From Verrucomicrobiales bacterium (GTDB lineage: Bacteria > Verrucomicrobiota > Verrucomicrobiia > Verrucomicrobiales > DEV007), in assembly GCA_016795505.1 (NCBI GenBank), contig JAEUHH010000079.1:1-64000 (forward strand): a stretch of 64,000 nucleotides of DNA. The letters run 5' to 3'. Below the pieces are notes generated by a model. That model searched no databases. It was not told the origin of the DNA and was given only the letters and a program-made list of their open reading frames with translations. Below, in pieces: positions 43,836 to 55,571 of the stretch. Position 1 is the first letter of the stretch, and the number at the start of each line of letters is the position of its first letter. The translations under genes and the position numbers were made by a program.

Positions 43836-46775
43836 TGGCCTATTATCCCTCCGGCACGGGACGGCCAGAATGCCGGTTCCGCGGCACCGTCAAGCTGATG
43901 CGTTTTGGCTTCCCCCCCGGCACGGGACGGCTAGAATCTGGCGAGCCGCTTGGACACCAGCGGGGCAGTTTTGGCTTCCCCCCCGGCACGGGACGGCTAG
44001 AATCGGAGTGGTGCCGATACAGACCGCTGACGAGTTTTGGCTTCCCCCCCGGCACGGGACGGCTAGAATGAACGCACCCCGCCGCAAAGCAAAGCCCCGG
44101 TTTTGGCTTCCCCCCCGGCACGGGACGGCTAGAATGGTGAAGGCCTCAACGAGGCGAGCGTATCGGTTTTGGCTTCCCCCCCGGCACGGGACGGCTAGAA
44201 TCCGCATCCTCCGCGTATCGCCTGACGAAGTGTTTTGGCTTCCCCCCCGGCACGGGACGGCTAGAATGGCCATGGGTTGCGCGAACTCGATGCGGAGGTT
44301 TTGGCTTCCCCCCCGGCACGGGACGGCTAGAATCCAAGTCCTCCTTGGTTTTGTCGGGCTTGGTTTTGGCTTCCCCCCCGGCACGGGACGGCTAGAATCC
44401 GGAGAAAGCCGCGCCGCCCGTGCCGAGCGTTTTGGCTTCCCCCCCGGCACGGGACGGCTAGAATTCCGGCAGCGGGCTGGCCAGCGTCTCGGCGGTTTTG
44501 GCTTCCCCCCCGGCACGGGACGGCTAGAATGCTGACACTGCCCTCGACCAGTCCGGCAAGGTTTTGGCTTCCCCCCCGGCACGGGACGGCTAGAATTGCT
44601 TAAAATCCGCGACGTGGGCGAAGATGGTTTTGGCTTCCCCCCCGGCACGGGACGGCTAGAATCCGGATGATACCCATTACAGCTACGAGATGGTTTTGGC
44701 TTCCCCCCCGGCACGGGACGGCTAGAATACCGAGGATAAAGCGCAACTGGCCCGGACTGTTTTGGCTTCCCCCCCGGCACGGGACGGCTAGAATGATGCG
44801 GCCCGCGATGCCTCCCATAGATCGGTTTTGGCTTCCCCCCCGGCACGGGACGGCTAGAATGACCCCGCTTGCCACCCGCGCATTTAAAGGGTTTTGGCTT
44901 CCCCCCCGGCACGGGACGGCTAGAATAACGCTGGATGTCCGCCGGCGCCGTGGCCGGTTTTGGCTTCCCCCCCGGCACGGGACGGCTAGAATCCTCTACG
45001 GCGATCCCATTCGCAAAGGCGGGTTTTGGCTTCCCCCCCGGCACGGGACGGCTAGAATGCAGGCCGCCACCGAGATCGTCGCCGATGGGTTTTGGCTTCC
45101 CCCCCGGCACGGGACGGCTAGAATTGTCCCCTGGTTACTGCCCCGCCTCCCGGAGTTTTGGCTTCCCCCCCGGCACGGGACGGCTAGAATAGCTGGGCGG
45201 AGCTGATGGCGAACTCGAGGGTTTTGGCTTCCCCCCCGGCACGGGACGGCTAGAATGTGCGTCTGCGAGCATTTCGCGGGCATGTTGTTTTGGCTTCCCC
45301 CCCGGCACGGGACGGCTAGAATCGCGCCCCTTCCGCTTTGGCGTCGAGATCGGTTTTGGCTTCCCCCCCGGCACGGGACGGCTAGAATGCCGGTCCAGCT
45401 CGTCCCAGGCATCCAGCAGTTTTGGCTTCCCCCCCGGCACGGGACGGCTAGAATTCGAGCTCCCACGTCTCAGACTGGCTCAGTGTTTTGGCTTCCCCCC
45501 CGGCACGGGACGGCTAGAATCCACCAACGTCGCGGTCTGGGTGGAGATGGGTTTTGGCTTCCCCCCCGGCACGGGACGGCTAGAATGGCGCTGAGTTGGT
45601 CCGCGAGCGCGACGCGGTTTTGGCTTCCCCCCCGGCACGGGACGGCTAGAATCGGAGGGGCAGGCCTGTCGCACCACCTGCTGTTTTGGCTTCCCCCCCG
45701 GCACGGGACGGCTAGAATTCCGGCGTGCCCACCAGCTCCGGCGCATGGGTTTTGGCTTCCCCCCCGGCACGGGACGGCTAGAATGGGCGGTAGCGGTGGC
45801 ACCGTTGGGGCATGGTTTTGGCTTCCCCCCCGGCACGGGACGGCTAGAATTCCGTGTTGCTCTTGGCCCGCTGCTTGCGTGTTTTGGCTTCCCCCCCGGC
45901 ACGGGACGGCTAGAATCGTCGATGGCGGCGCGCGTCCTGGTGATCTGTTTTGGCTTCCCCCCCGGCACGGGACGGCTAGAATTCCGTCAGCACCGATCCC
46001 GCCGGCTTCGCGTGTTTTGGCTTCCCCCCCGGCACGGGACGGCTAGAATTCGGGGCCGGCCGTCAACAGGCCGCCGCCGGTTTTGGCTTCCCCCCCGGCA
46101 CGGGACGGCTAGAATAAGCCGCGACAAATGCGGCCCGGTAGATGTGTTTTGGCTTCCCCCCCGGCACGGGACGGCTAGAATGCCGCCGAGCAGCACTTGC
46201 CGGCAAGTGCCGTTTTGGCTTCCCCCCCGGCACGGGACGGCTAGAATCCCTTTTCCCAGACTCCCACGACCCCGCCGGTTTTGGCTTCCCCCCCGGCACG
46301 GGACGGCTAGAATAGCGCAAGGTGACGCCGCTGCGCCTCCGTGGTTTTGGCTTCCCCCCCGGCACGGGACGGCTAGAATCCGCCATGGACGACGACGGCA
46401 AACACTACGGTTTTGGCTTCCCCCCCGGCACGGGACGGCTAGAATGCCAAGACCGCGGCGGCGTCTGCGTTGACGGTTTTGGCTTCCCCCCCGGCACGGG
46501 ACGGCTAGAATGCTGCCGACGGCGACGGTGGGCGACATCATGTTTTGGCTTCCCCCCCGGCACGGGACGGCTAGAATGCCGCATTCGCGTGCAGCTCGAT
46601 CGCGATGGTTTTGGCTTCCCCCCCGGCACGGGACGGCTAGAATATTGCAGCACCATCTCGAAGCTCAGCGACTGTTTTGGCTTCCCCCCCGGCACGGGAC
46701 GGCTAGAATGAGCGATCGCGCGCAGATAGTCCCGCATCAGTTTTGGCTTCCCCCCCGGCACGGGACGGCTAGAAT
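43836..46775 (+). CRISPR. CRISPR array, 45 repeats and 44 spacers, type II-C
   Basis: The 36-bp repeat starts GTTTTGGCTTCCC and ends GGGACGGCTAGAAT. Reading every unit, 44 repeats start at 43902, 43968, 44034 and so on to 46740, and look identical wherever I checked; a degenerate first repeat lies at 43836-43871, conserved only in its 3' half. Spacers are 30 bp except one of 29 (before 44363) and one of 31 (before 46014). The plus strand is the crRNA sense: the start and end match the type II-C pattern GTTNTAG...ACAAT, and the tracrRNA anti-repeat is on the same strand. The TAGAAT at each repeat end resembles a -10 box, as known for Neisseria meningitidis. The degenerate repeat marks the old end, so new spacers probably enter on the cas2 side. 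Confidence 0.99.
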
Positions 46776-46780
46776 AGGAG

Positions 46781-46809
46781 TTGCAGAACCCGTTTATGTT
46801 TAGTATAGA
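46781..46809 (+). promoter_or_regulatory. tracrRNA promoter
   Basis: TTGCAG at 46781-46786 and TATAGA at 46804-46809 are separated by exactly 17 bases. A start about 7 bases downstream falls at 46815-46817, the first base of the anti-repeat. It sits only 5 bases after the last repeat. Confidence 0.75.
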
Positions 46810-46815
46810 GACATC

Positions 46816-46915
46816 ATTCTAGTCGTCCCGTGCCGGGAATTTACTAGGGAAGCCTTAACTGAAAAGCAGCCGCATGGAGCCCTGCCATTGGCACCTCTCT
46901 TGCGGCTCTTTTTTT
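46816..46915 (+). ncRNA. tracrRNA
   Basis: About 100 nt, same strand as the crRNAs. The anti-repeat spans 46816-46859: ATTCTAGTCGTCCCGTGCC pairs with the last 19 bases of the repeat with a single G-U; GGG (46835-46837) continues the helix; a bulge AATTTACTA (46838-46846) follows; GGGAAGCC (46847-46854) pairs with GGCTTCCC near the repeat start; TT faces TT, and AAC closes with GTT. After TGAAAAGC comes a terminator hairpin. Order, bulge position and 3' hairpin agree with tracrRNAs of other Cas9 systems. The lower helix next to the spacer is 8 bp plus 3 bp. Confidence 0.9.
46868..46915 (+). terminator. tracrRNA terminator, overlapping the cas2 stop codon
   Basis: AGCCGCA (46868-46874) pairs with TGCGGCT (46901-46907), with an inner hairpin TGCC-ATT-GGCA, followed by seven T residues (46909-46915). 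The cas2 stop on the other strand is at 46914-46916. Confidence 0.85.
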
Positions 46916-47267
46916 ACCAAAACTCCACCTGTTCCGGCTGCTCAAGCCGGTCAGGGGGATGTTTTTTTCTGTAATTGCCCCCGCTGATGCAAATGCCACG
47001 CGTCCACTGGGCGTCGGTTAAAAACAAGGCCCGGACGTTTCCGGCGCGGGGAATGATCTTTTGAATCCGACTCGCGTGCTTTTCCATGCGATCCAAATCC
47101 GGACACGCCCGGGTATAGATGCTGAACTGGACCATGAAAAACCCATCGTCGAGCAACGCCTTGCGAAAGTCCGTCGCGGCCCGGCGCTGCGCCTTGGTCA
47201 GCACGGGCAGATCGAACATGACCAGCATCCAGCCCATGCGATAGGGTGACAGTTTTTCCTTGGGCAC
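46914..47267 (-). CDS. cas2: CRISPR-associated endonuclease Cas2
   Basis: A 117-residue Cas2, which forms the structural core of the Cas1-Cas2 spacer integrase. GWMLVMFDLPVLTKAQRRAATDFRKALLDDGF near 12 is the ferredoxin-like start with the conserved Asp, and QFSIYTRACPDLDRM and VRALFLTDAQW are typical of type II Cas2. It starts 28 bases after the cas1 stop on the same strand. Its stop codon lies in the T-run of the convergent tracrRNA terminator. An alternative start at Met11 is possible. Confidence 0.95.
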   Translation of the reverse strand: MPKEKLSPYRMGWMLVMFDLPVLTKAQRRAATDFRKALLDDGFFMVQFSIYTRACPDLDRMEKHASRIQKIIPRAGNVRALFLTDAQWTRGICISGGNYRKKHPPDRLEQPEQVEFW

Positions 47268-47295: not shown

Positions 47296-48195
47296 TCAAT
47301 TCAATGCCGGAACCCACAGCGGTTCAGGACTGGAGTGGCTGTAGCTCTGTGCCAGGGAGGAGGCGGTCTTGTCGATGGCGTCGAGCAGCTTCAACGAATA
47401 GGGCTCACGCTCGACTCGCCGCTCCCGGAGTTCGCGGCCAATGTGGCGACACCAGGCTGCCTCGGTAATCTCCTGCGATTGGCACATGAAGTCCGCCAGC
47501 AGACAATCGACGAAGGGGCGGTAGGGCTCCATGACATCGTAAACCAGGGGATCGGACCGGTATCGGGCGACATGCCCCACTCCAAGCAAGGGCGAAAGGC
47601 CATGAACGATGAGGGATCGGTGGCAGAGGGCTGACAATACGGTGTAGCCATAGTTCAGCATCCGGTTTGGAGGCGTATTGAGCTTGCGATCGCGTCGGGT
47701 GGCCGACCACCCGATACTCGGGAAGTAGAGCTGCCAGTAATGGCGGGCGCAATTACCCTCGTCGATCTGCTTTTGTTTCATCGCCCGCTCCAGATGGGCG
47801 CTGAACAGGTCGCGCTGGCGGAGCACGGCTTGCTGATTCGCCGTCTTGCCGAGGAGCAACTTTTGCCAGAGCCGGTCATTGAGCCGCTTGGGCTGGCTGG
47901 CCTGGGTCAGAAACGCGCGGGTATCGATGATGCGGGGCATCGGCGCGGTGATGCCCACCGGGCGGTAGGACTCGTCGCAGTGAAGCAACATCCCATCGTG
48001 CCCCAGGATGCCCGAAATGGCGGAGCTGGTCAGCGTGACACCGCGGGCGGCGATGACCACGGCGCGAATATCCTCCAACGGGAGTCTCCGCTCCGGGGTG
48101 GCGGGATCGTCTTTGGGCGGACAGCACACCAGCATCCCTCGCTCTTTCGCCAGGGTGGCTCCGTGGGTGAGAATGTGGATGACGTGGTAGCTCAT
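47296..48195 (-). CDS. cas1: CRISPR-associated endonuclease Cas1 (type II)
   Basis: A 299-residue integrase that inserts new spacers. The N-terminal beta domain includes LPLEDIRAVVIAARGVTLTSSAISGILGHDG; the helical catalytic domain has the conserved Glu in DEGNCARHYWQLYF near 150, His in HGLSPLLGVGH near 215 and Asp in PLVYDVMEPYRPFVD near 230. The sequence GWSATRRDRKLNTPPNRMLNYGYTVL is typical of type II Cas1. The start overlaps the cas9 stop (ATGA at 48192-48195), indicating translational coupling. No cas4 or csn2 is present, which with cas9-cas1-cas2 defines subtype II-C. Confidence 0.97.
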   Translation of the reverse strand: MSYHVIHILTHGATLAKERGMLVCCPPKDDPATPERRLPLEDIRAVVIAARGVTLTSSAISGILGHDGMLLHCDESYRPVGITAPMPRIIDTRAFLTQASQPKRLNDRLWQKLLLGKTANQQAVLRQRDLFSAHLERAMKQKQIDEGNCARHYWQLYFPSIGWSATRRDRKLNTPPNRMLNYGYTVLSALCHRSLIVHGLSPLLGVGHVARYRSDPLVYDVMEPYRPFVDCLLADFMCQSQEITEAAWCRHIGRELRERRVEREPYSLKLLDAIDKTASSLAQSYSHSSPEPLWVPALN

Positions 48196-51100
48196 TTTAG
48201 CTTTCTTAGATCGACGCGCCGGAAGCCGGCTGCCATTAGAGAGGTAATTGGTATTTTGGTGAAGTCGTCACCCCTAGAGCTTTTTAAATCTACCTTTCGC
48301 TTCTTTTCTTCAACTCCGCCCAACCGGTACCGCCCTGGAGCCACTGTCTGGCGCCCAGACTGAACGGTCTGATCGATTTGGATGATGCAACCGGCTTGAA
48401 GGAAACAGATGACTTCCGAACAGTTGGGGTCGGCTTCGAGCTCGCGCCTCACCGCCGTTTGGGACTCAAATACCTTCACGGCTCGGATGCGGGGCTTTCG
48501 TTTGGCATCCAGAAAGAGCCACTGGCCGCGATGGCTGCCCTTTGCCATCCGCCACTGGCCGCGATGGCGCGGATCAGGCTCTTCAGGTCGGTCCTTCGCC
48601 AGATTTCGGTAGTTCTCAAATCCGGGCTTGTCGGACCAACAGGAAACTCGCTGAATGAGGGGGCCGCCCGGTGAAAGGCGAAAACTGGTGCAGAACTCCA
48701 ACCACGCCGTCGCCTGCTCGGCAGCGGAATCCAACCCATCCAAATCGGTAGCGACCGCCAACACCCGCCGACGAATCTCATCATCACGAATCTCGGAAGC
48801 GCTTTTGCGAAGGGATTTGGTACTGAATTTGATCGGGTTCCCGTTCGCGTCGGTCGTGTCGAATCCCAAATTGAAAAGCACGCGTCGAATCGTGGCTTTC
48901 GGTTCGCCACTCGGCGATGGGCGCATCCCGTAAATCGTTTCGCGCAGGACGGGCTTTTCAAAACGAAGTTCTTCGGCCACGACGCGGTCCAAGATCGGCT
49001 CAAAAAATGCCGCCCAATTCCGCCCTCGATCTGGAAGACTGAAGTAGAGGCTCTTGGTTGGATCCCCGGCCCAATGAGGCAGGAATGAGAGGACCATCGC
49101 ATCGAGGGCGTGGTGGCGTTTATCAGATCGGATTTTGTCCTCAATCGCTTTCTGCAATTTTACCACCGCTGTTCGCGCCTTCTTGAGTTCATCCAACGGG
49201 GCGCCTCCTTCATTGAGCACCGAAACCACGTCCAGTGCGGCGGCCAACTCCCGCTCCTGTTCCTCCAATCTCCCGGGGCCTCCGAGTAGCTTGTAGAGAC
49301 CATGCTTTTTCGCCACGCGATTGGTGACTGAACCGGTAACGATGACAATCCTGCGCTGCTGCCCTCCAAAATCGAGGGGCCAGCCAAATTTGAGGCAGAT
49401 CAGGGTGCGGGTCAATTTGGCGATCCACGCGGTCTCTTGTAGTGCCGTTCGCCTCTGGACCAGTTCGGCTGCCTCGGATTCACTGGTTGTGGTGAGAAGC
49501 TTCTTTTTGAAAGGCCGGATCAGTGGGCATTCTCGATCAATGAATCCAACGAACGAGTCCCAATCCCGAGGAAACCGCCCCTCCGCGAAGGCGACCGCAT
49601 GATACCGAGTGCCTTGGGCGAGATTGCAAGGTTTGCATCCTAAAACGAGATTGAGATAGGCGCGGGCGCCGCCGGCCTTCTGCGAGACAATGTGGCAAAT
49701 CTCTGCTTCGTCGTAGGATCGGTCCGTCGCGGTGGAATGAAATGTTTGCGGGTGCGAAATCGGCCCGCCGCAGAATAGGCATCGGCCGCCCTGCTCCGAA
49801 AACAGTTGGTGCTTCAAAATGGCGCCCTCGCCGGCTTTTGCCCCCAGTGTCTCCTGAATCCGGAGGCGTTCTTCACGGCGCTGATTGTTGAAGGCATCCA
49901 GCTTTTTCTTTCGCTCGCTGTCCCGGCCCATGAACTCGTCGCGCGCGAACTCCAACACGACTCTGTCAGGATAGGAATCGGGGGTGGGAAAGTGTTGATC
50001 CAGAATTTGATCCAGCAGGGTGAGTCGGTGCCGAATACGAGGATTGATCTCAGAGCCAATCAATTCCTTGATCGCCGCCCTTCGCGCTTTGGAGTCGGCA
50101 GCCGAGGCGATGCCTGAGAAGATTTCGAGCCGTTCATCCCTGACGGAAAGTTTTTCCCACGTGGCACCAATATTGTGGAGGAATTTCAAATTCTCGACGG
50201 TAAGGCCCCGTTTCTCGTCCGTATTCAGTAGGCCGTCGGCAGCGGAAAGGCGCACCAATCTTCGTAATTCACCCCACTTCTGGGTGTCGTTGGGAATTTC
50301 TTCAGCATCGTTTTTTTCCGAGATTAGAGCCTGGTGGAAGGCTGCCGGATCGAGACCAGAAACGACAAGGGCCCGGAGAATTCGAAGTCCCGGACGTGAA
50401 AACCGCGATCGACCGGACATTTTTGGCTTCTCGATCGCGACATCCCGCTTTTTCGTCTCCTGGCCGGGCTTTGGGCTGAAATCCCCTGAAAAGCGGGCTG
50501 AAAGCCAATTCACCATTTCCGTCCGCGTGATCGCTGAACGGGCACCGGGAGATAACATACGGCCTACGACTTTCTTTTGGAAAAACGCCTTATGAAACGC
50601 GGCGATCTCTTCCGCCGTCAGCCAGTCCCTCCCGGAGCCCAACTCGGGAACGAATCGGAAATGCTTCAATTGAAGCAAAAATGAAACCTCTGCAGCCAGA
50701 ACCGATTCGGGGTCAACCGTACCATCCGTCCGCACCCGAATCTCTGCCTTCACAACGTTGAACCGGGGCAAGAGGGCACAGGAACCGACACAGCGATTAT
50801 CAAAAGTGGGCGCCTTCTGACCGAGTGCGGCATTGAGTTCAGCGGATTTTCCCCGGACAAATTTCCGCCGCTCCTCCTCGGGCAAAGCAGCAAGGGCGGC
50901 CTTTCGGCGAGCTTCGATGTCGTTCACCCCATCCCCAATGCGGGGAATATTCGGGTACGGAACCTCCGTGGGACCATACGCGATGAAAGCGGCTTTTCCG
51001 GCAAGCTCGGGAATCAACTTTTCCGCCGCAGCGCAAAGGGCGAGCAATTCTGCTTCCACCAGAATGCGCGGAAACACTGCCGGCATTCTGTGAAAGGCTG

Positions 51101-52079
51101 CCTGCGTCTCCGCTACCTTGTCTTTCTTTTTGGCGGGATCGAACCGGTCCGCCCATTTGGTTGATTTGGCATGGTGCGTGTAATGAAGTGAGACCCGATC
51201 CGGGGCATCCGGACTCCATAGACCCATCTGAGCCGCCTCCCAAAAACACGGAAATTGCTTGCTTGGATCATCCGGCGAGAGACTCTCGATGATCGCGCCC
51301 ATCGATTGTGCGCGGGCGAGGTTGTCGGCTTCATCCTTTTTCTGGCGGCGGTCCTCCTCATCGGCGTTGTCTTCAACCGTTGCTGACCCGTCAGCATTAC
51401 CAATTCCACCACCGGTAGCTGCTCCGGTTTCACCCTCGGTGGCCTTCTTTCGAGAAGCCACCCGCTTCCAAGGTACATCGGGATCATATCCCCTCTTTTG
51501 TATTGCAGAGTGAAGCGCCTTGAAAACCTGCCATGGCTCCAACAACCGGCCTTGAACTTCAATCTGGGCGTCGCCCCCCAGCAAAAGGAGGCAACGCAAG
51601 GCTGCGCCACAATAAACCGTTCGAGAGCCAATCTCATCGCCCACCGCGCCATCCTTGCCGGTTTGGCCGGGTCTAGGCGGGAATTCCCTCTCCAGTCGAA
51701 AATCACCAGGACTCTGGAGGCGAAATGACTTCTTCACCTTTCCATCGGGTAGCGTTACGGAAACCCTTTCAATCTGCCGTCCCTGTAGAATTGCGTCGGC
51801 ACGGCCGACTTCAGTGAAGACTTGGCGAAGCCATTTTTCACGGATCAGATGGGATTGCCGCGTTCGATGCATTCGCCGTCGTATTCTTTCACCATCTAAC
51901 GCGGCCCAGTTTTCGGGGAGCTCACATGAGCGAACCAATGGAAAAGAATAGATGGTGCCAGCGGGCGAAGGATTGCGCTCCTGAACGGCAATCCCGAAGG
52001 ATCCAATCCCAATATCAAGGGCTAGGATTCGGTGAATTGAGTCAGCGGGTAGATCTCCAGGCAAATTTTCAGTCGTCAT
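48192..52079 (-). CDS. cas9: CRISPR-associated endonuclease Cas9 (type II-C, long form)
   Basis: A 1295-residue RNA-guided DNA endonuclease. The start at 52079 (MTTENLPGDLPADS) is preferred; an ATG at 52130 would add 17 residues. RuvC-I is ILALDIGIGSFGIAV (Asp22); the Arg-rich bridge helix is RIRRRMHRTRQSHLIREKW; RuvC-II is VVLEFARDEF (Glu710); RuvC-III is RHHALDAMVLSFL (His989, Asp993). The HNH domain has CLFC (767-770), EICHIV (His796), LNL (Asn810) and CKPCN (815-819). The two CxxC pairs suggest bound zinc, which SpCas9, NmeCas9 and CjeCas9 lack but IscB proteins have. The residue before the catalytic His is Cys795, where Asp is usual. A charged, Gly/Ala-rich insert lies at about 210-260 in the recognition lobe. 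All nuclease motifs are present, so it should be active. Confidence 0.97.
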   Translation of the reverse strand: MTTENLPGDLPADSIHRILALDIGIGSFGIAVQERNPSPAGTIYSFPLVRSCELPENWAALDGERIRRRMHRTRQSHLIREKWLRQVFTEVGRADAILQGRQIERVSVTLPDGKVKKSFRLQSPGDFRLEREFPPRPGQTGKDGAVGDEIGSRTVYCGAALRCLLLLGGDAQIEVQGRLLEPWQVFKALHSAIQKRGYDPDVPWKRVASRKKATEGETGAATGGGIGNADGSATVEDNADEEDRRQKKDEADNLARAQSMGAIIESLSPDDPSKQFPCFWEAAQMGLWSPDAPDRVSLHYTHHAKSTKWADRFDPAKKKDKVAETQAAFHRMPAVFPRILVEAELLALCAAAEKLIPELAGKAAFIAYGPTEVPYPNIPRIGDGVNDIEARRKAALAALPEEERRKFVRGKSAELNAALGQKAPTFDNRCVGSCALLPRFNVVKAEIRVRTDGTVDPESVLAAEVSFLLQLKHFRFVPELGSGRDWLTAEEIAAFHKAFFQKKVVGRMLSPGARSAITRTEMVNWLSARFSGDFSPKPGQETKKRDVAIEKPKMSGRSRFSRPGLRILRALVVSGLDPAAFHQALISEKNDAEEIPNDTQKWGELRRLVRLSAADGLLNTDEKRGLTVENLKFLHNIGATWEKLSVRDERLEIFSGIASAADSKARRAAIKELIGSEINPRIRHRLTLLDQILDQHFPTPDSYPDRVVLEFARDEFMGRDSERKKKLDAFNNQRREERLRIQETLGAKAGEGAILKHQLFSEQGGRCLFCGGPISHPQTFHSTATDRSYDEAEICHIVSQKAGGARAYLNLVLGCKPCNLAQGTRYHAVAFAEGRFPRDWDSFVGFIDRECPLIRPFKKKLLTTTSESEAAELVQRRTALQETAWIAKLTRTLICLKFGWPLDFGGQQRRIVIVTGSVTNRVAKKHGLYKLLGGPGRLEEQERELAAALDVVSVLNEGGAPLDELKKARTAVVKLQKAIEDKIRSDKRHHALDAMVLSFLPHWAGDPTKSLYFSLPDRGRNWAAFFEPILDRVVAEELRFEKPVLRETIYGMRPSPSGEPKATIRRVLFNLGFDTTDANGNPIKFSTKSLRKSASEIRDDEIRRRVLAVATDLDGLDSAAEQATAWLEFCTSFRLSPGGPLIQRVSCWSDKPGFENYRNLAKDRPEEPDPRHRGQWRMAKGSHRGQWLFLDAKRKPRIRAVKVFESQTAVRRELEADPNCSEVICFLQAGCIIQIDQTVQSGRQTVAPGRYRLGGVEEKKRKVDLKSSRGDDFTKIPITSLMAAGFRRVDLRKLK

Positions 52080-52291: not shown

Positions 52292-53080
52292 ATGAACGAC
52301 GAAATTGCCAATCAGCTCATGAGCTATCGGAACCGTCTTTCGTGTCTCGATAGACCTGACCACCTGCCCATCTGGCAGAATCAGCCGCCCCTCGCCTTCA
52401 CCACCAAAGTCGGCCAGGCCCGCGCGCTCACCAACGAACTGGCCGCCATGGCCGGTCGTCAGTCGGCCCTGATCAAGGGAAACGCCAAGGACAAACGCCG
52501 CGAAGAGGCGGAATTGGAGGAGGCAGCCTACCGCATGGCCCGCGCCGTGGTCACCTGCGCCACCGACCTCGGCAATCTGGCGCTGGCGGGTCGCTACGAC
52601 CAGACCCTCACCGCCTGGCGCAAGCTCCGCGACGAGGCGCTGATCCAGCGAGCCCGCCTGCTGGAACAAGAGGCCGGCGAACTGGCCACCGGCGCCGATG
52701 CCGCCCTGGCGGCGGACTACGGCATCACCCCAGCCTCGGTGGCAGCCCTGAAAAAGGAGGCCGACGACTACCAGTCGGTGGTGAACCTGCCGCAGGGCGC
52801 GATCGACGACCGCGTCGTTCTGACACGGAATCTGCCGATCAAATCGCGCGAAGTGGCAACGAAATTCGACGAACTGGCGGATTTGATCCTGCAATTCAAG
52901 CTCGTCCCCGGCGGCGCGCCTTTTGTAGAGCTGTATTTCCAGTCGGATCAGATCCTGGACCGCGGCCACGGTCCCCGGCCCAAAGCTCCCGACGGGGAGA
53001 ATGGCCCCACCGACCCGTCCGGACCGTCCGGACCGTCCGCACCGCCCGCTCCGACCCCGGACACCCCGCCGGCCGGCTGA
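52292..53080 (+). CDS. Unknown protein, first of two tandem paralogues beside cas9
   Basis: A 262-residue protein, divergent from cas9 with 212 bases between starts. The first 225 residues look mainly helical and soluble, without a signal peptide. They align throughout with the protein at 53190: MNDEIANQLMSYRNRL, WQNQPPLAF, KVGQARALTNEL, RDEALIQRARLLE, YGITPASVAALKKEAD, SREVATKFDELADL and LDRGHGPRP all have close counterparts. The last 35 residues are a Pro/Ser/Gly-rich tail (GPSGPSAPPAPTPDTPPAG). I do not recognise the family. The proximity to cas9 may or may not be functional; the hairpin repeats downstream suggest an accessory region. Confidence 0.8.
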   Translation: MNDEIANQLMSYRNRLSCLDRPDHLPIWQNQPPLAFTTKVGQARALTNELAAMAGRQSALIKGNAKDKRREEAELEEAAYRMARAVVTCATDLGNLALAGRYDQTLTAWRKLRDEALIQRARLLEQEAGELATGADAALAADYGITPASVAALKKEADDYQSVVNLPQGAIDDRVVLTRNLPIKSREVATKFDELADLILQFKLVPGGAPFVELYFQSDQILDRGHGPRPKAPDGENGPTDPSGPSGPSAPPAPTPDTPPAG

Positions 53081-53189: not shown

Positions 53190-54170
53190 ATGAACGACAT
53201 CGTTGCCAACCAGATCGGGAGTTACCGCACCCGGCTGACCTGTCTGGACCAGCCGGCCCACCGGGCGGTGTGGTACAATCAACCGCCGGTGATGTTCACC
53301 CAAAAGGTGGAGCAGGCGCGGCTGCTGACCGCGGAACTGATCGAACTGTCGGGCCGCCAAAGCGCCCCGACCACCGGTCACGCCCGCGACAAGGATCGGG
53401 AGGAAGACGACCTCGAACAGACCGCGCACGCCCTAGCGCGGGCGGTGGTGACCTATGCGCGCGACCAACGGAATGAGGCGCTGGCGGCCCGCTACGATCT
53501 GCCGTCATCGGGCTGGCGCGCGATGCGGGACGAGGCGCTGATCCAGCGGGTGCGCCTGCTGGAGTCCGACGCCGCGGGTCTGGTGGCCGGGGCGAACGCG
53601 GTGGAGGCGGGGCAATACGGCATCACCCCGTCGGCGGTGGCCGCGCTGAAGGCCCAGGCCGATGCCTACGAGGCGCTGATGGCGGTGCCGCAGGATGCGA
53701 TCGCCGATCGCACGGTGCAGACGGCGGCGCTGCGCACCCGATCGCGGGCGGTGGCGGCGAAATTCGGCGAGGTGGAGGATCTGCTGCCGCAATTTGAGAC
53801 CACCCCGGCCGGCCGGGCCTTTGCGGCGGCCTTCCGCGCCAGCAGCCGGATCACGGATCGCGGGCACGGCCCGTCGCATCCGCGGCCGGAGCCGCCGTAT
53901 CCGCCGCCGTCGAGTTCGTCGCTGTCGAGTGGGTCGTCGTCGTCGCTGTCGTCACCTTCATCATCATCGCCGTCGCCATCGTCGTCCTCACCGTCGTCGA
54001 GTCCGAGTCCCAGTGCGTTGCCGTCATCGTCGTCGTCGAGTCCGTCGTCGTCTTCGTCCCCGCCTCCACTGCCGTCGAGTTCGTCCCCGTCGTCGTCGAG
54101 TTCCAGTTCGAGTTCCAGCTCGTCCTCGTCGAACCCCGGCCCGCCCCCGTCGAGTTCGTCGTCGGCGTGA
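53190..54170 (+). CDS. Unknown protein, second tandem paralogue, with long Ser/Pro tail
   Basis: A 326-residue protein. Residues 1-225 are a paralogue of the protein at 52292 with roughly half of the positions identical and no large gaps (MNDIVANQIGSYRTRL, WYNQPPVMF, RDEALIQRVRLLE, YGITPSAVAALKAQAD, ITDRGHGPS). From about residue 230 the sequence becomes almost only Ser and Pro, about 95 residues, encoded largely by TCG, TCC and TCA triplets (53908-54168). Such tails are typical of linkers or surface stalks, but there is no signal peptide or membrane helix. Function unknown. The duplication with divergent tails suggests the helical domain is the working part. Confidence 0.8.
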   Translation: MNDIVANQIGSYRTRLTCLDQPAHRAVWYNQPPVMFTQKVEQARLLTAELIELSGRQSAPTTGHARDKDREEDDLEQTAHALARAVVTYARDQRNEALAARYDLPSSGWRAMRDEALIQRVRLLESDAAGLVAGANAVEAGQYGITPSAVAALKAQADAYEALMAVPQDAIADRTVQTAALRTRSRAVAAKFGEVEDLLPQFETTPAGRAFAAAFRASSRITDRGHGPSHPRPEPPYPPPSSSSLSSGSSSSLSSPSSSSPSPSSSSPSSSPSPSALPSSSSSSPSSSSSPPPLPSSSSPSSSSSSSSSSSSSSNPGPPPSSSSSA

Positions 54171-54363: not shown

Positions 54364-54855
54364 GCAGGCCAGACGGGCGTCCGGGGACGATTTGTTCACA
54401 TCCGGCCCCGCTCGTTTCCCATTCGTGGCGTTCGCACCATCGAATGAGAGAGCCACCGGCGCGCCCGCATACCAGCCCAGGGCAACGCCCTGGTTACCCA
54501 CCCATCCCTCAGAAATACGCCCTGAAGGGGCGTCGCATCCCCATCTTGTCCGGCATTGCAGCCAACTGGCGACTGCGGCGCCCCTTCAGGGCGCTTTTCA
54601 GGGTCTGGACCGGGTTCCCAGAGCGTTGCTCTGGGCTGGTATGCGACGGGCCTTCAGCCCGGTTTATCGACGCACTTCCCCCCAACACGTCCACTCGATT
54701 TCCCATTCGTGGCGTTCGCGTCATTCGAGTTCCAACCTCCTGGGAACGAGCGCCGTTTTCTCCTCGCGCCCCTGCCGGGGCGCAGGTGATTGGGGGGGGA
54801 CCTGGACCGGTGGTTCCGCTGCGCTCCACCACCGGCTACCTTCCGTCGTCCCTCC

Positions 54856-54935
54856 GGGACGATCGCGCGGAGATTCCACCGGGAGGTATCGGCACCCGAC
54901 CAAAGTAGCTCGGGCTTAAGCCCGAACCGCGTCGG
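54856..54935 (+). repeat. 80-bp direct repeat, copy 1
   Basis: Begins GGGACGATCGCGCGGAGATT and ends with the GTAGCTCGGGCTT-AAGCCCGA hairpin (54905-54925). The second copy starts 178 bases later at 55034. Confidence 0.8.
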
Positions 54936-55033
54936 GCTTGCCGCCATCGCAGATCGCAGGCCGCAGGGCAGCGATCGCAGGTCGCCCCGGCCCAGTCACC
55001 CGCCTCGCCCTCGAGCCAAGCAATGGCCCCGGA

Positions 55034-55113
55034 GGGACGATCGCGCGGAGATTCCGCCGGGAGGTATCGATACCCAACCAAGGTAGCTCGGGCTTTAGCC
55101 CGAACCGCATCGG
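55034..55113 (+). repeat. 80-bp direct repeat, copy 2
   Basis: Matches 54856-54935 with about eight differences and carries the third GTAGCTCGGGCTT hairpin (55083-55103). Confidence 0.8.
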
Positions 55114-55571
55114 TCGTGACCCTGGCCTAAAGGAAAAGGCGATTCCCGCCTCGACCGAAGCTTCGCGCGGACGGTAAACTCTCGCTCGTGGCTGCAAATC
55201 CACTCCGCGGCTCGCTGAACCTCGAGACTGATAGCGGAGTCGGGTGATATGCTGTTCGCTTTGAACAAGCGGGCCTCATTTCGAGAATGGGCGTCACTAT
55301 TTGCGTTGGGCGATGCCCGGCCACCTGCGCCAAGGCCGCCTGGCTTTGCGTCAATGGGATTGCCTCTCCTGACGCCCCCCTTTTTTCCGCCCAGCCACGG
55401 TTGGCCGCGTCTCCACACCCGCGGCAATCCGCCAGTGGCGGGAACGGGAAGGAACGGGTAGCCTGCTGGCTGCCGCGTCGCTTTTGATTTCGACCGAGGC
55501 TGCCTCCCGGCGGCGGTGGGCGGTGCGGCACCTGTCATTTTTTCCACCCTTTTCCCCCACCCTCCCCGTCC

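What the first reader, a model, noticed from the sequence alone, without database searches (positions are those of the whole stretch)
48192..52079. Long type II-C Cas9 with a zinc-ribbon-like HNH domain and Cys before the catalytic His
Seen: two CxxC pairs (767/770 and 815/818) frame the HNH site, the residue before catalytic His796 is Cys instead of the metal-binding Asp found in SpCas9 (Asp839), NmeCas9 and CjeCas9, and total length is 1295 aa, well above NmeCas9 (1082) and CjeCas9 (984). Known: IscB proteins carry a CxxC/CxxC HNH. Inference: this Cas9 belongs to a deep or little-studied II-C branch that kept or regained a zinc-bound HNH, and its metal site may be arranged differently.
Basis: partly seen in the sequence, partly recalled or inferred. 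Interest (0 to 1): 0.82.

Follow-up and report, generated by a model that had tools for sequence, protein, structure and literature searches.

The report
Cas9 clade with rebuilt HNH site
This CRISPR gene-cutting enzyme (Cas9) belongs to a small bacterial lineage whose DNA-cutting HNH domain has lost two residues thought essential, yet the domain is still strongly preserved by evolution, so it either cuts by a changed chemistry or no longer cuts.

Summary
The window holds a complete type II CRISPR-cas locus: cas9 (1295 aa), cas1, cas2, a tracrRNA and a 44-repeat array. The Cas9 HNH has CxxC (767/770) and CxxC (815/818) around His796, which is preceded by Cys795.

Much of the reading changes. 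A four-Cys HNH is not unusual: solved AceCas9 (II-C) and compact Cas9d align with the same CxxC...DH...CxxCN pattern. Cys795 is not conserved either.

The real feature is clade-wide. Five Verrucomicrobiota Cas9s, monophyletic at 100/99 support with HNH left out of the tree, carry C/A/A/A/S where 40 of 40 other sampled Cas9s have Asp or Glu (SpCas9 D839). All five also have Gln for the otherwise invariant Lys (K866; 40/40), His for Pro871 (38/40), Arg for D850, and a 9-10-residue insertion. The sister protein has the four Cys but keeps Asp and Lys, so the zinc site came first.

The general base, both Asn and the RuvC residues remain, and in the closest pair HNH is the most constrained part (omega 0.036 versus 0.20), which argues against decay. 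Most likely this is a working HNH with a remodelled metal site; a natural RuvC-only nickase is the main rival. Subtype is ambiguous.

The parts
48192..52079 (-). cas9, 1295 aa; RuvC D22, E710, H990, D993 intact
49470..49826 (-). HNH domain, residues 752-870
   Evidence: alignment; Pfam HNH PF01844 25.6 bits on the HNH stretch
49770..49781 (-). first CxxC, C767 and C770 (CLFC)
   Evidence: C767 is also present in 38 of 39 other Cas9s, C770 in 1 of 39 plus sister L130
49695..49697 (-). C795, at the place of the metal-binding Asp (SpCas9 D839); C/A/A/A/S in the clade
49692..49694 (-). H796, general base (SpCas9 H840)
   Evidence: invariant
49662..49664 (-). R806, clade-specific Arg (D in 32 of 40 others)
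49650..49652 (-). N810 (SpCas9 N854)
49626..49637 (-). second CxxC, C815 and C818 (CKPC)
49623..49625 (-). N819, remaining metal ligand (SpCas9 N863)
   Evidence: invariant
49614..49616 (-). Q822, at the place of the invariant Lys (SpCas9 K866); Q in 5 of 5 clade members, K in 40 of 40 others
49599..49601 (-). H827, clade-specific His (P in 38 of 40 others)
47296..48195 (-). cas1, 299 aa, type II (TIGR03639 131.1 bits, cut-off 120)
46914..47267 (-). cas2, 117 aa
46814..46914 (+). tracrRNA: anti-repeat pairs with nearly the whole repeat (-62.8 kcal/mol), then a terminator hairpin and a T run
43902..46775 (+). CRISPR array: 44 identical 36-nt repeats, 43 spacers of 29-31 nt
43836..43871 (+). degenerate terminal repeat (12 of 36 mismatches)

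Best explanation
A complete, probably working type II CRISPR-Cas locus whose Cas9 belongs to a small Verrucomicrobiota clade with a remodelled HNH nuclease site. Four Cys (767, 770, 815, 818) most likely hold a structural zinc, as in AceCas9, AnaCas9 and compact Cas9d (inferred). H796 activates water, and one divalent metal at the scissile phosphate of the target strand is held by N819, water and phosphate without the usual Asp (inferred). Cys795 is just a small residue in the emptied place, not a new ligand, since sisters have Ala or Ser. The positive charge normally given by Lys866 is probably supplied by new conserved residues such as R806 or H827 (inferred, weakest step). RuvC cuts the other strand as usual. 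Shown: the sequence pattern, its single origin on the tree, and strong constraint on HNH. Not shown: zinc, cleavage, metal preference.
For: Five members are monophyletic with HNH columns removed (SH-aLRT 99; 100/99), and acid loss needs one change on the tree. The substitutions come together in one clade: D839-eq to C/A/A/A/S, K866-eq to Q, P871-eq to H, D850-eq to R, plus a 9-10-aa insertion, against 38-40 of 40 other Cas9s for the first three. H796, N810, N819, four Cys and the RuvC residues are kept. HNH is the most constrained part between L128 and L129: omega 0.036, versus 0.20 for the rest. The sister L130 keeps four Cys with Asp and Lys. The HNH is native to this family: its best match is NF049971 at 43.6 bits, above Csn1 28.8 and IscB 19.8. 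An HNH of IscB type with Ala before His has a solved structure (HfmIscB 9k2z). The locus is complete, with an array and a pairing tracrRNA.
Against: D839A substantially compromised SpCas9 editing, and a basic residue at the K866 place was proposed to be required across the superfamily (PMC6706240); losing both at once could mean an inactive HNH. R806 and H827 as replacements rest on conservation only. Two of the five clade genes (L078, L128) are split by frame breaks in their draft genomes. AlphaFold models were poor (mean pLDDT 43.7 and 57.0), so the Cys and active-site geometry was not seen.
Confidence: 0.6

Rival explanations
1. The HNH has lost catalysis and is kept as a structural or regulatory domain; the enzyme nicks only the non-target strand with RuvC, or mainly binds.
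For: Both D839-eq and K866-eq are gone in all five; D839A compromises SpCas9 and Lys is described as invariant in II-A and II-C (PMC6706240). PMC12669027 describes a phage Cas9 variant that kept only one active nuclease, HNH in that case.
Against: H796 and N819 have no role other than catalysis that is known to me, yet stay invariant in 5 of 5, and HNH is the most constrained part (omega 0.036). A dead site would be expected to drift at these residues.
Confidence: 0.25
2. Canonical HNH chemistry: another acidic residue moved in to replace the Asp, so the site is unusual in sequence but ordinary in geometry.
For: The 9-10-residue insertion before the His strand could bring a new side chain; the window protein and L078 have Glu at 793.
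Against: No acidic residue is conserved across the five in the insertion, and position 793 is E/V/E/H/H (alignment A5).
Confidence: 0.12
3. The HNH was imported from a free-standing HNH nuclease by recombination, bringing its own active site.
For: Pfam HNH and HNH_5 match the clade's HNH, and a solved HNH endonuclease (9om4) has a similar 'EIAHIVGQSKGGPR' strand.
Against: The HNH alone scores best against the Cas9d model. No free-standing protein with this signature was found in 145 genomes at E <= 1e-6 or among viral contigs. Sister L130 is intermediate.
Confidence: 0.12
4. Decaying gene or sequencing artefact.
For: Frame breaks in L078 and L128.
Against: The window gene, L019 and L129 are intact long frames; five independent genomes share the pattern; purifying selection in HNH.
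Confidence: 0.03

Closest known systems
AceCas9 (Acidothermus cellulolyticus, type II-C, PDB 8d2k)
   Same: 1138-aa Cas9 with CxxC...DHIV...CxxCN in HNH; among the best zinc-type matches
   Different: Keeps Asp before His and Lys three after the metal Asn; no insertion
Compact Cas9d (type II-D; PDB 8zq9, 8w2s, 747 aa)
   Same: CxxC...DDHI...CxxCN HNH; Zn-finger in HNH reported (PMC9755519)
   Different: Keeps Asp and Lys; much shorter; published II-D loci carry cas4 (PMC12669027), and none was found here
Large 'Cas9d' family of Verrucomicrobiota (NF049971)
   Same: Same family, same cas9-cas1-cas2-array order and similar repeats
   Different: Other members have [D/E]H and Lys, and lack the four Cys except L130; L086 has CxxC...HxxC
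AnaCas9 (type II-C, 4ogc)
   Same: Discussed as a Zn-finger HNH in PMC5304195
   Different: Second metal held by Asp581 and Asn606; the Asp is missing here
HfmIscB (PDB 9k2z)
   Same: Ala in place of Asp before the catalytic His, with a CxxC pair
   Different: IscB, with His in place of the metal Asn (CSGCH); not a CRISPR effector

Membership tests
Type II CRISPR-Cas (Cas9) | RuvC and HNH nuclease motifs in one protein | tested here: met
   D22, E710, H990, D993, H796, N810, N819; Pfam RuvC_III above cut-off
Type II CRISPR-Cas (Cas9) | cas1, cas2, array and tracrRNA with anti-repeat | tested here: met
Subtype II-C | Only cas9, cas1 and cas2, without csn2 or cas4 | tested here: met
   Gene content and no Cas4 in the held genome; csn2 was not searched by profile
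Subtype II-C | Cas9 inside the II-C part of the Cas9 tree | tested here: inconclusive
   Nearest solved Cas9s by family profile are mostly II-C, but TIGR01865 falls just short of its cut-off (97.8 of 100) and NCBIfam calls it Cas9d; no tree against reference subtypes was built
Subtype II-D (Cas9d) | Match to the Cas9d protein model | tested here: met
   NF049971 564.6 bits, cut-off 375; 21 of 21 family members match
Subtype II-D (Cas9d) | Adaptation module with cas4 (PMC12669027) | tested here: not met
   No Cas4 in the 96.6% complete genome
Subtype II-D (Cas9d) | Compact Cas9, about 450-1050 aa (PMC9755519) | tested here: not met
   1295 aa
Zinc-ribbon HNH | Two CxxC pairs framing the HNH core | tested here: met
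Zinc-ribbon HNH | Bound zinc, four Cys close in space | not testable with these tools
   AlphaFold models too poor and coordinates not readable
Canonical Cas9 HNH site (D-H-N plus Lys) | Acidic residue before the catalytic His | tested here: not met
   C/A/A/A/S in the clade, D or E in 40 of 40 others
Canonical Cas9 HNH site (D-H-N plus Lys) | Lys three residues after the metal Asn | tested here: not met
   Q in 5 of 5, K in 40 of 40 others
Canonical Cas9 HNH site (D-H-N plus Lys) | General-base His and metal Asn | tested here: met

The most novel reading that the evidence does not exclude
A natural Cas9 clade cuts the target strand with an HNH site that needs neither the Asp nor the Lys held to be essential in Cas9, using a differently bound metal and new basic residues (R806, H827), perhaps with a different metal preference.
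Probability: 0.5. Interest if true: 0.72.

Novelty: new variant of a known kind. Interest (0 to 1): 0.58.

Why it matters
Which residues the Cas9 HNH needs has been argued from mutants and models of SpCas9. A natural lineage that lost D839-eq and K866-eq together while keeping H and N under strong constraint is a ready natural test: either HNH has a second working solution, possibly with another metal preference, or it is a naturally one-strand-cutting Cas9. Both would interest enzymologists and genome-editing groups.

Tried and rejected
Cys795 as a new metal ligand: rejected, sisters have Ala or Ser. Zinc HNH as the novelty: rejected. HNH imported from a free-standing nuclease: disfavoured. 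Confident II-D or II-C label: not reached. AlphaFold on residues 640-1010 alone and with 5 relatives: poor; Foldseek on the second model gave only weak Cas9 and HNH matches, none at E <= 0.001. Protospacers: none in phages or for two spacers in IMG/VR, so no PAM. Rfam: no match. Viral contigs encode no relative of the clade. Papers on HfmIscB or on II-D in Verrucomicrobia: none in the library.

Full report
Observation. The frame 48192-52079 (-) encodes a 1295-aa Cas9. Its only CxxC motifs are 767-770 and 815-818, framing His796, and residue 795 is Cys. The spacing H796-N810-N819 equals SpCas9 H840-N854-N863. RuvC residues D22, E710, H990 and D993 are present.

Locus. Downstream lie cas1 (47296-48195) and cas2 (46914-47267), then on the opposite strand a tracrRNA at about 46814-46914 with a terminator hairpin, and an array of 44 identical 36-nt repeats with 43 spacers. 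Repeat and anti-repeat pair along nearly their whole length (-62.8 kcal/mol). A degenerate repeat ends the array at 43836. Where the contig allows, relatives show cas9-cas1-cas2-array order with similar repeats. It looks like a working adaptive immune locus. No protospacer was found.

Subtype. NCBIfam names the protein Cas9d (564.6 bits, cut-off 375), while the general Cas9 model scores 97.8 of 100. The published II-D definition includes cas4 in the adaptation module (PMC12669027); no Cas4 is in the 96.6% complete genome, and this Cas9 is not compact. By a family profile the nearest solved proteins are mostly II-C enzymes. I therefore file it as type II with II-C gene content and a Cas9 of the NCBI 'Cas9d' family, and leave the subtype open.

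Relatives. Searches of genomes from the same phylum, plus named contigs (Opitutales, Didemnitutus, Elusimicrobia and others), gave about 30 family members with open frames of roughly 1030-1613 aa. The phylum is taken to be Verrucomicrobiota from the named relatives; the genome itself is unnamed. Closest to the window protein are L128 and L129 (50% and 44% identity by BLAST), then L019 (38%) and L078.

HNH comparison. The window protein, L019, L078, L128 and L129 share CxxC...[C/A/S]HIV...CxxCNxxQ...H. At the SpCas9 D839 place they have C, A, A, A, S; the other 40 Cas9s compared have D or E. At K866 they have Q in 5 of 5, the others K in 40 of 40. At P871 they have H, the others P in 38 of 40. 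At D850 they have R, the others mostly D (32 of 40). They also have 25-26 residues from C770 to H796 instead of 16-19. H796, N810 and N819 are unchanged.

History. With HNH columns left out, the five form one clade (SH-aLRT 99; 100/99), and loss of the acid needs one change. Their sister L130 has all four Cys but keeps Asp and Lys. Thus the zinc site preceded the remodelling and does not explain it. C767 is kept in 38 of 39 other Cas9s, which looks like a relic of an older zinc site (inference). L086 has CxxC with HxxC.

Constraint. Between L128 and L129 (72% identical in protein) dN/dS is 0.036 in HNH and 0.20 elsewhere, although they differ at the Asp place (A and S) (synonymous sites are near saturation, so the values are rough). 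This argues against a decaying HNH.

Known comparators. AceCas9 and compact Cas9d align with CxxC, DH, CxxCN and Lys; a Zn-finger HNH in compact Cas9d is published (PMC9755519); AnaCas9 uses Asp581 and Asn606 for the second metal (PMC5304195). The four-Cys HNH is therefore known. Ala before the catalytic His is seen in HfmIscB, which has His rather than Asn further on. In SpCas9, D839A substantially compromised editing, and Lys at K866 is described as invariant in II-A and II-C (PMC6706240). I found no report of a natural Cas9 lacking both, within a limited library.

Mechanism. Best reading: structural zinc on the four Cys, H796 as base, one metal held by N819, water and phosphate, with charge from R806 or H827 in place of Lys. 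The zinc and metal steps are inferred. The main rival is an inactive HNH with RuvC-only nicking. Conservation of H796 and N819 and the strong constraint favour activity, but only a strand-resolved cleavage assay can decide.

Limits. The sample is almost all from one phylum. Two clade genes are split in draft genomes. Structure models were too poor to show the Cys or active-site geometry.

Noticed in passing
L083:4137-8921 (G652): A member of the same Cas9 family with an open frame of 1613 aa, far longer than usual Cas9s, with large insertions; canonical DH and no second CxxC.
   Followed up: no
L086 (G819): A separate family member whose HNH has CxxC and HxxC (CLYC...HRQCN) with Glu before His: a possible independent zinc site.
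   Followed up: partly
L078 5869-9506 and L128 5771-9780: cas9 of two clade members is split by a frame break at different places in draft genomes; error or real loss not known.
   Followed up: partly
window 43836-46837: The degenerate repeat lies at the array end away from the cas genes, while the tracrRNA points to crRNA transcription towards the cas genes; repeats end in TAGAAT, like a -10 box, as if each repeat held its own promoter. A consensus scan found no promoter.
   Followed up: partly
window 52292-53080 and 53190-54170 (+): Two tandem, similar genes of unknown family next to cas9, the second with a long Ser-rich tail; no Pfam match above cut-off.
   Followed up: partly
window 54466-54645 and 54856-55118: A 72-nt inverted repeat (78%) and an 85-nt direct repeat (89%) in the stretch upstream of cas9; possibly mobile or REP-like elements.
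   Followed up: no
window cas9 residues 799 and 805: The window protein lacks the proline of GGPR (it has GGAR) and has Ser after HIV where most family members have Pro, so its HNH is somewhat more diverged than its sisters'.
   Followed up: no
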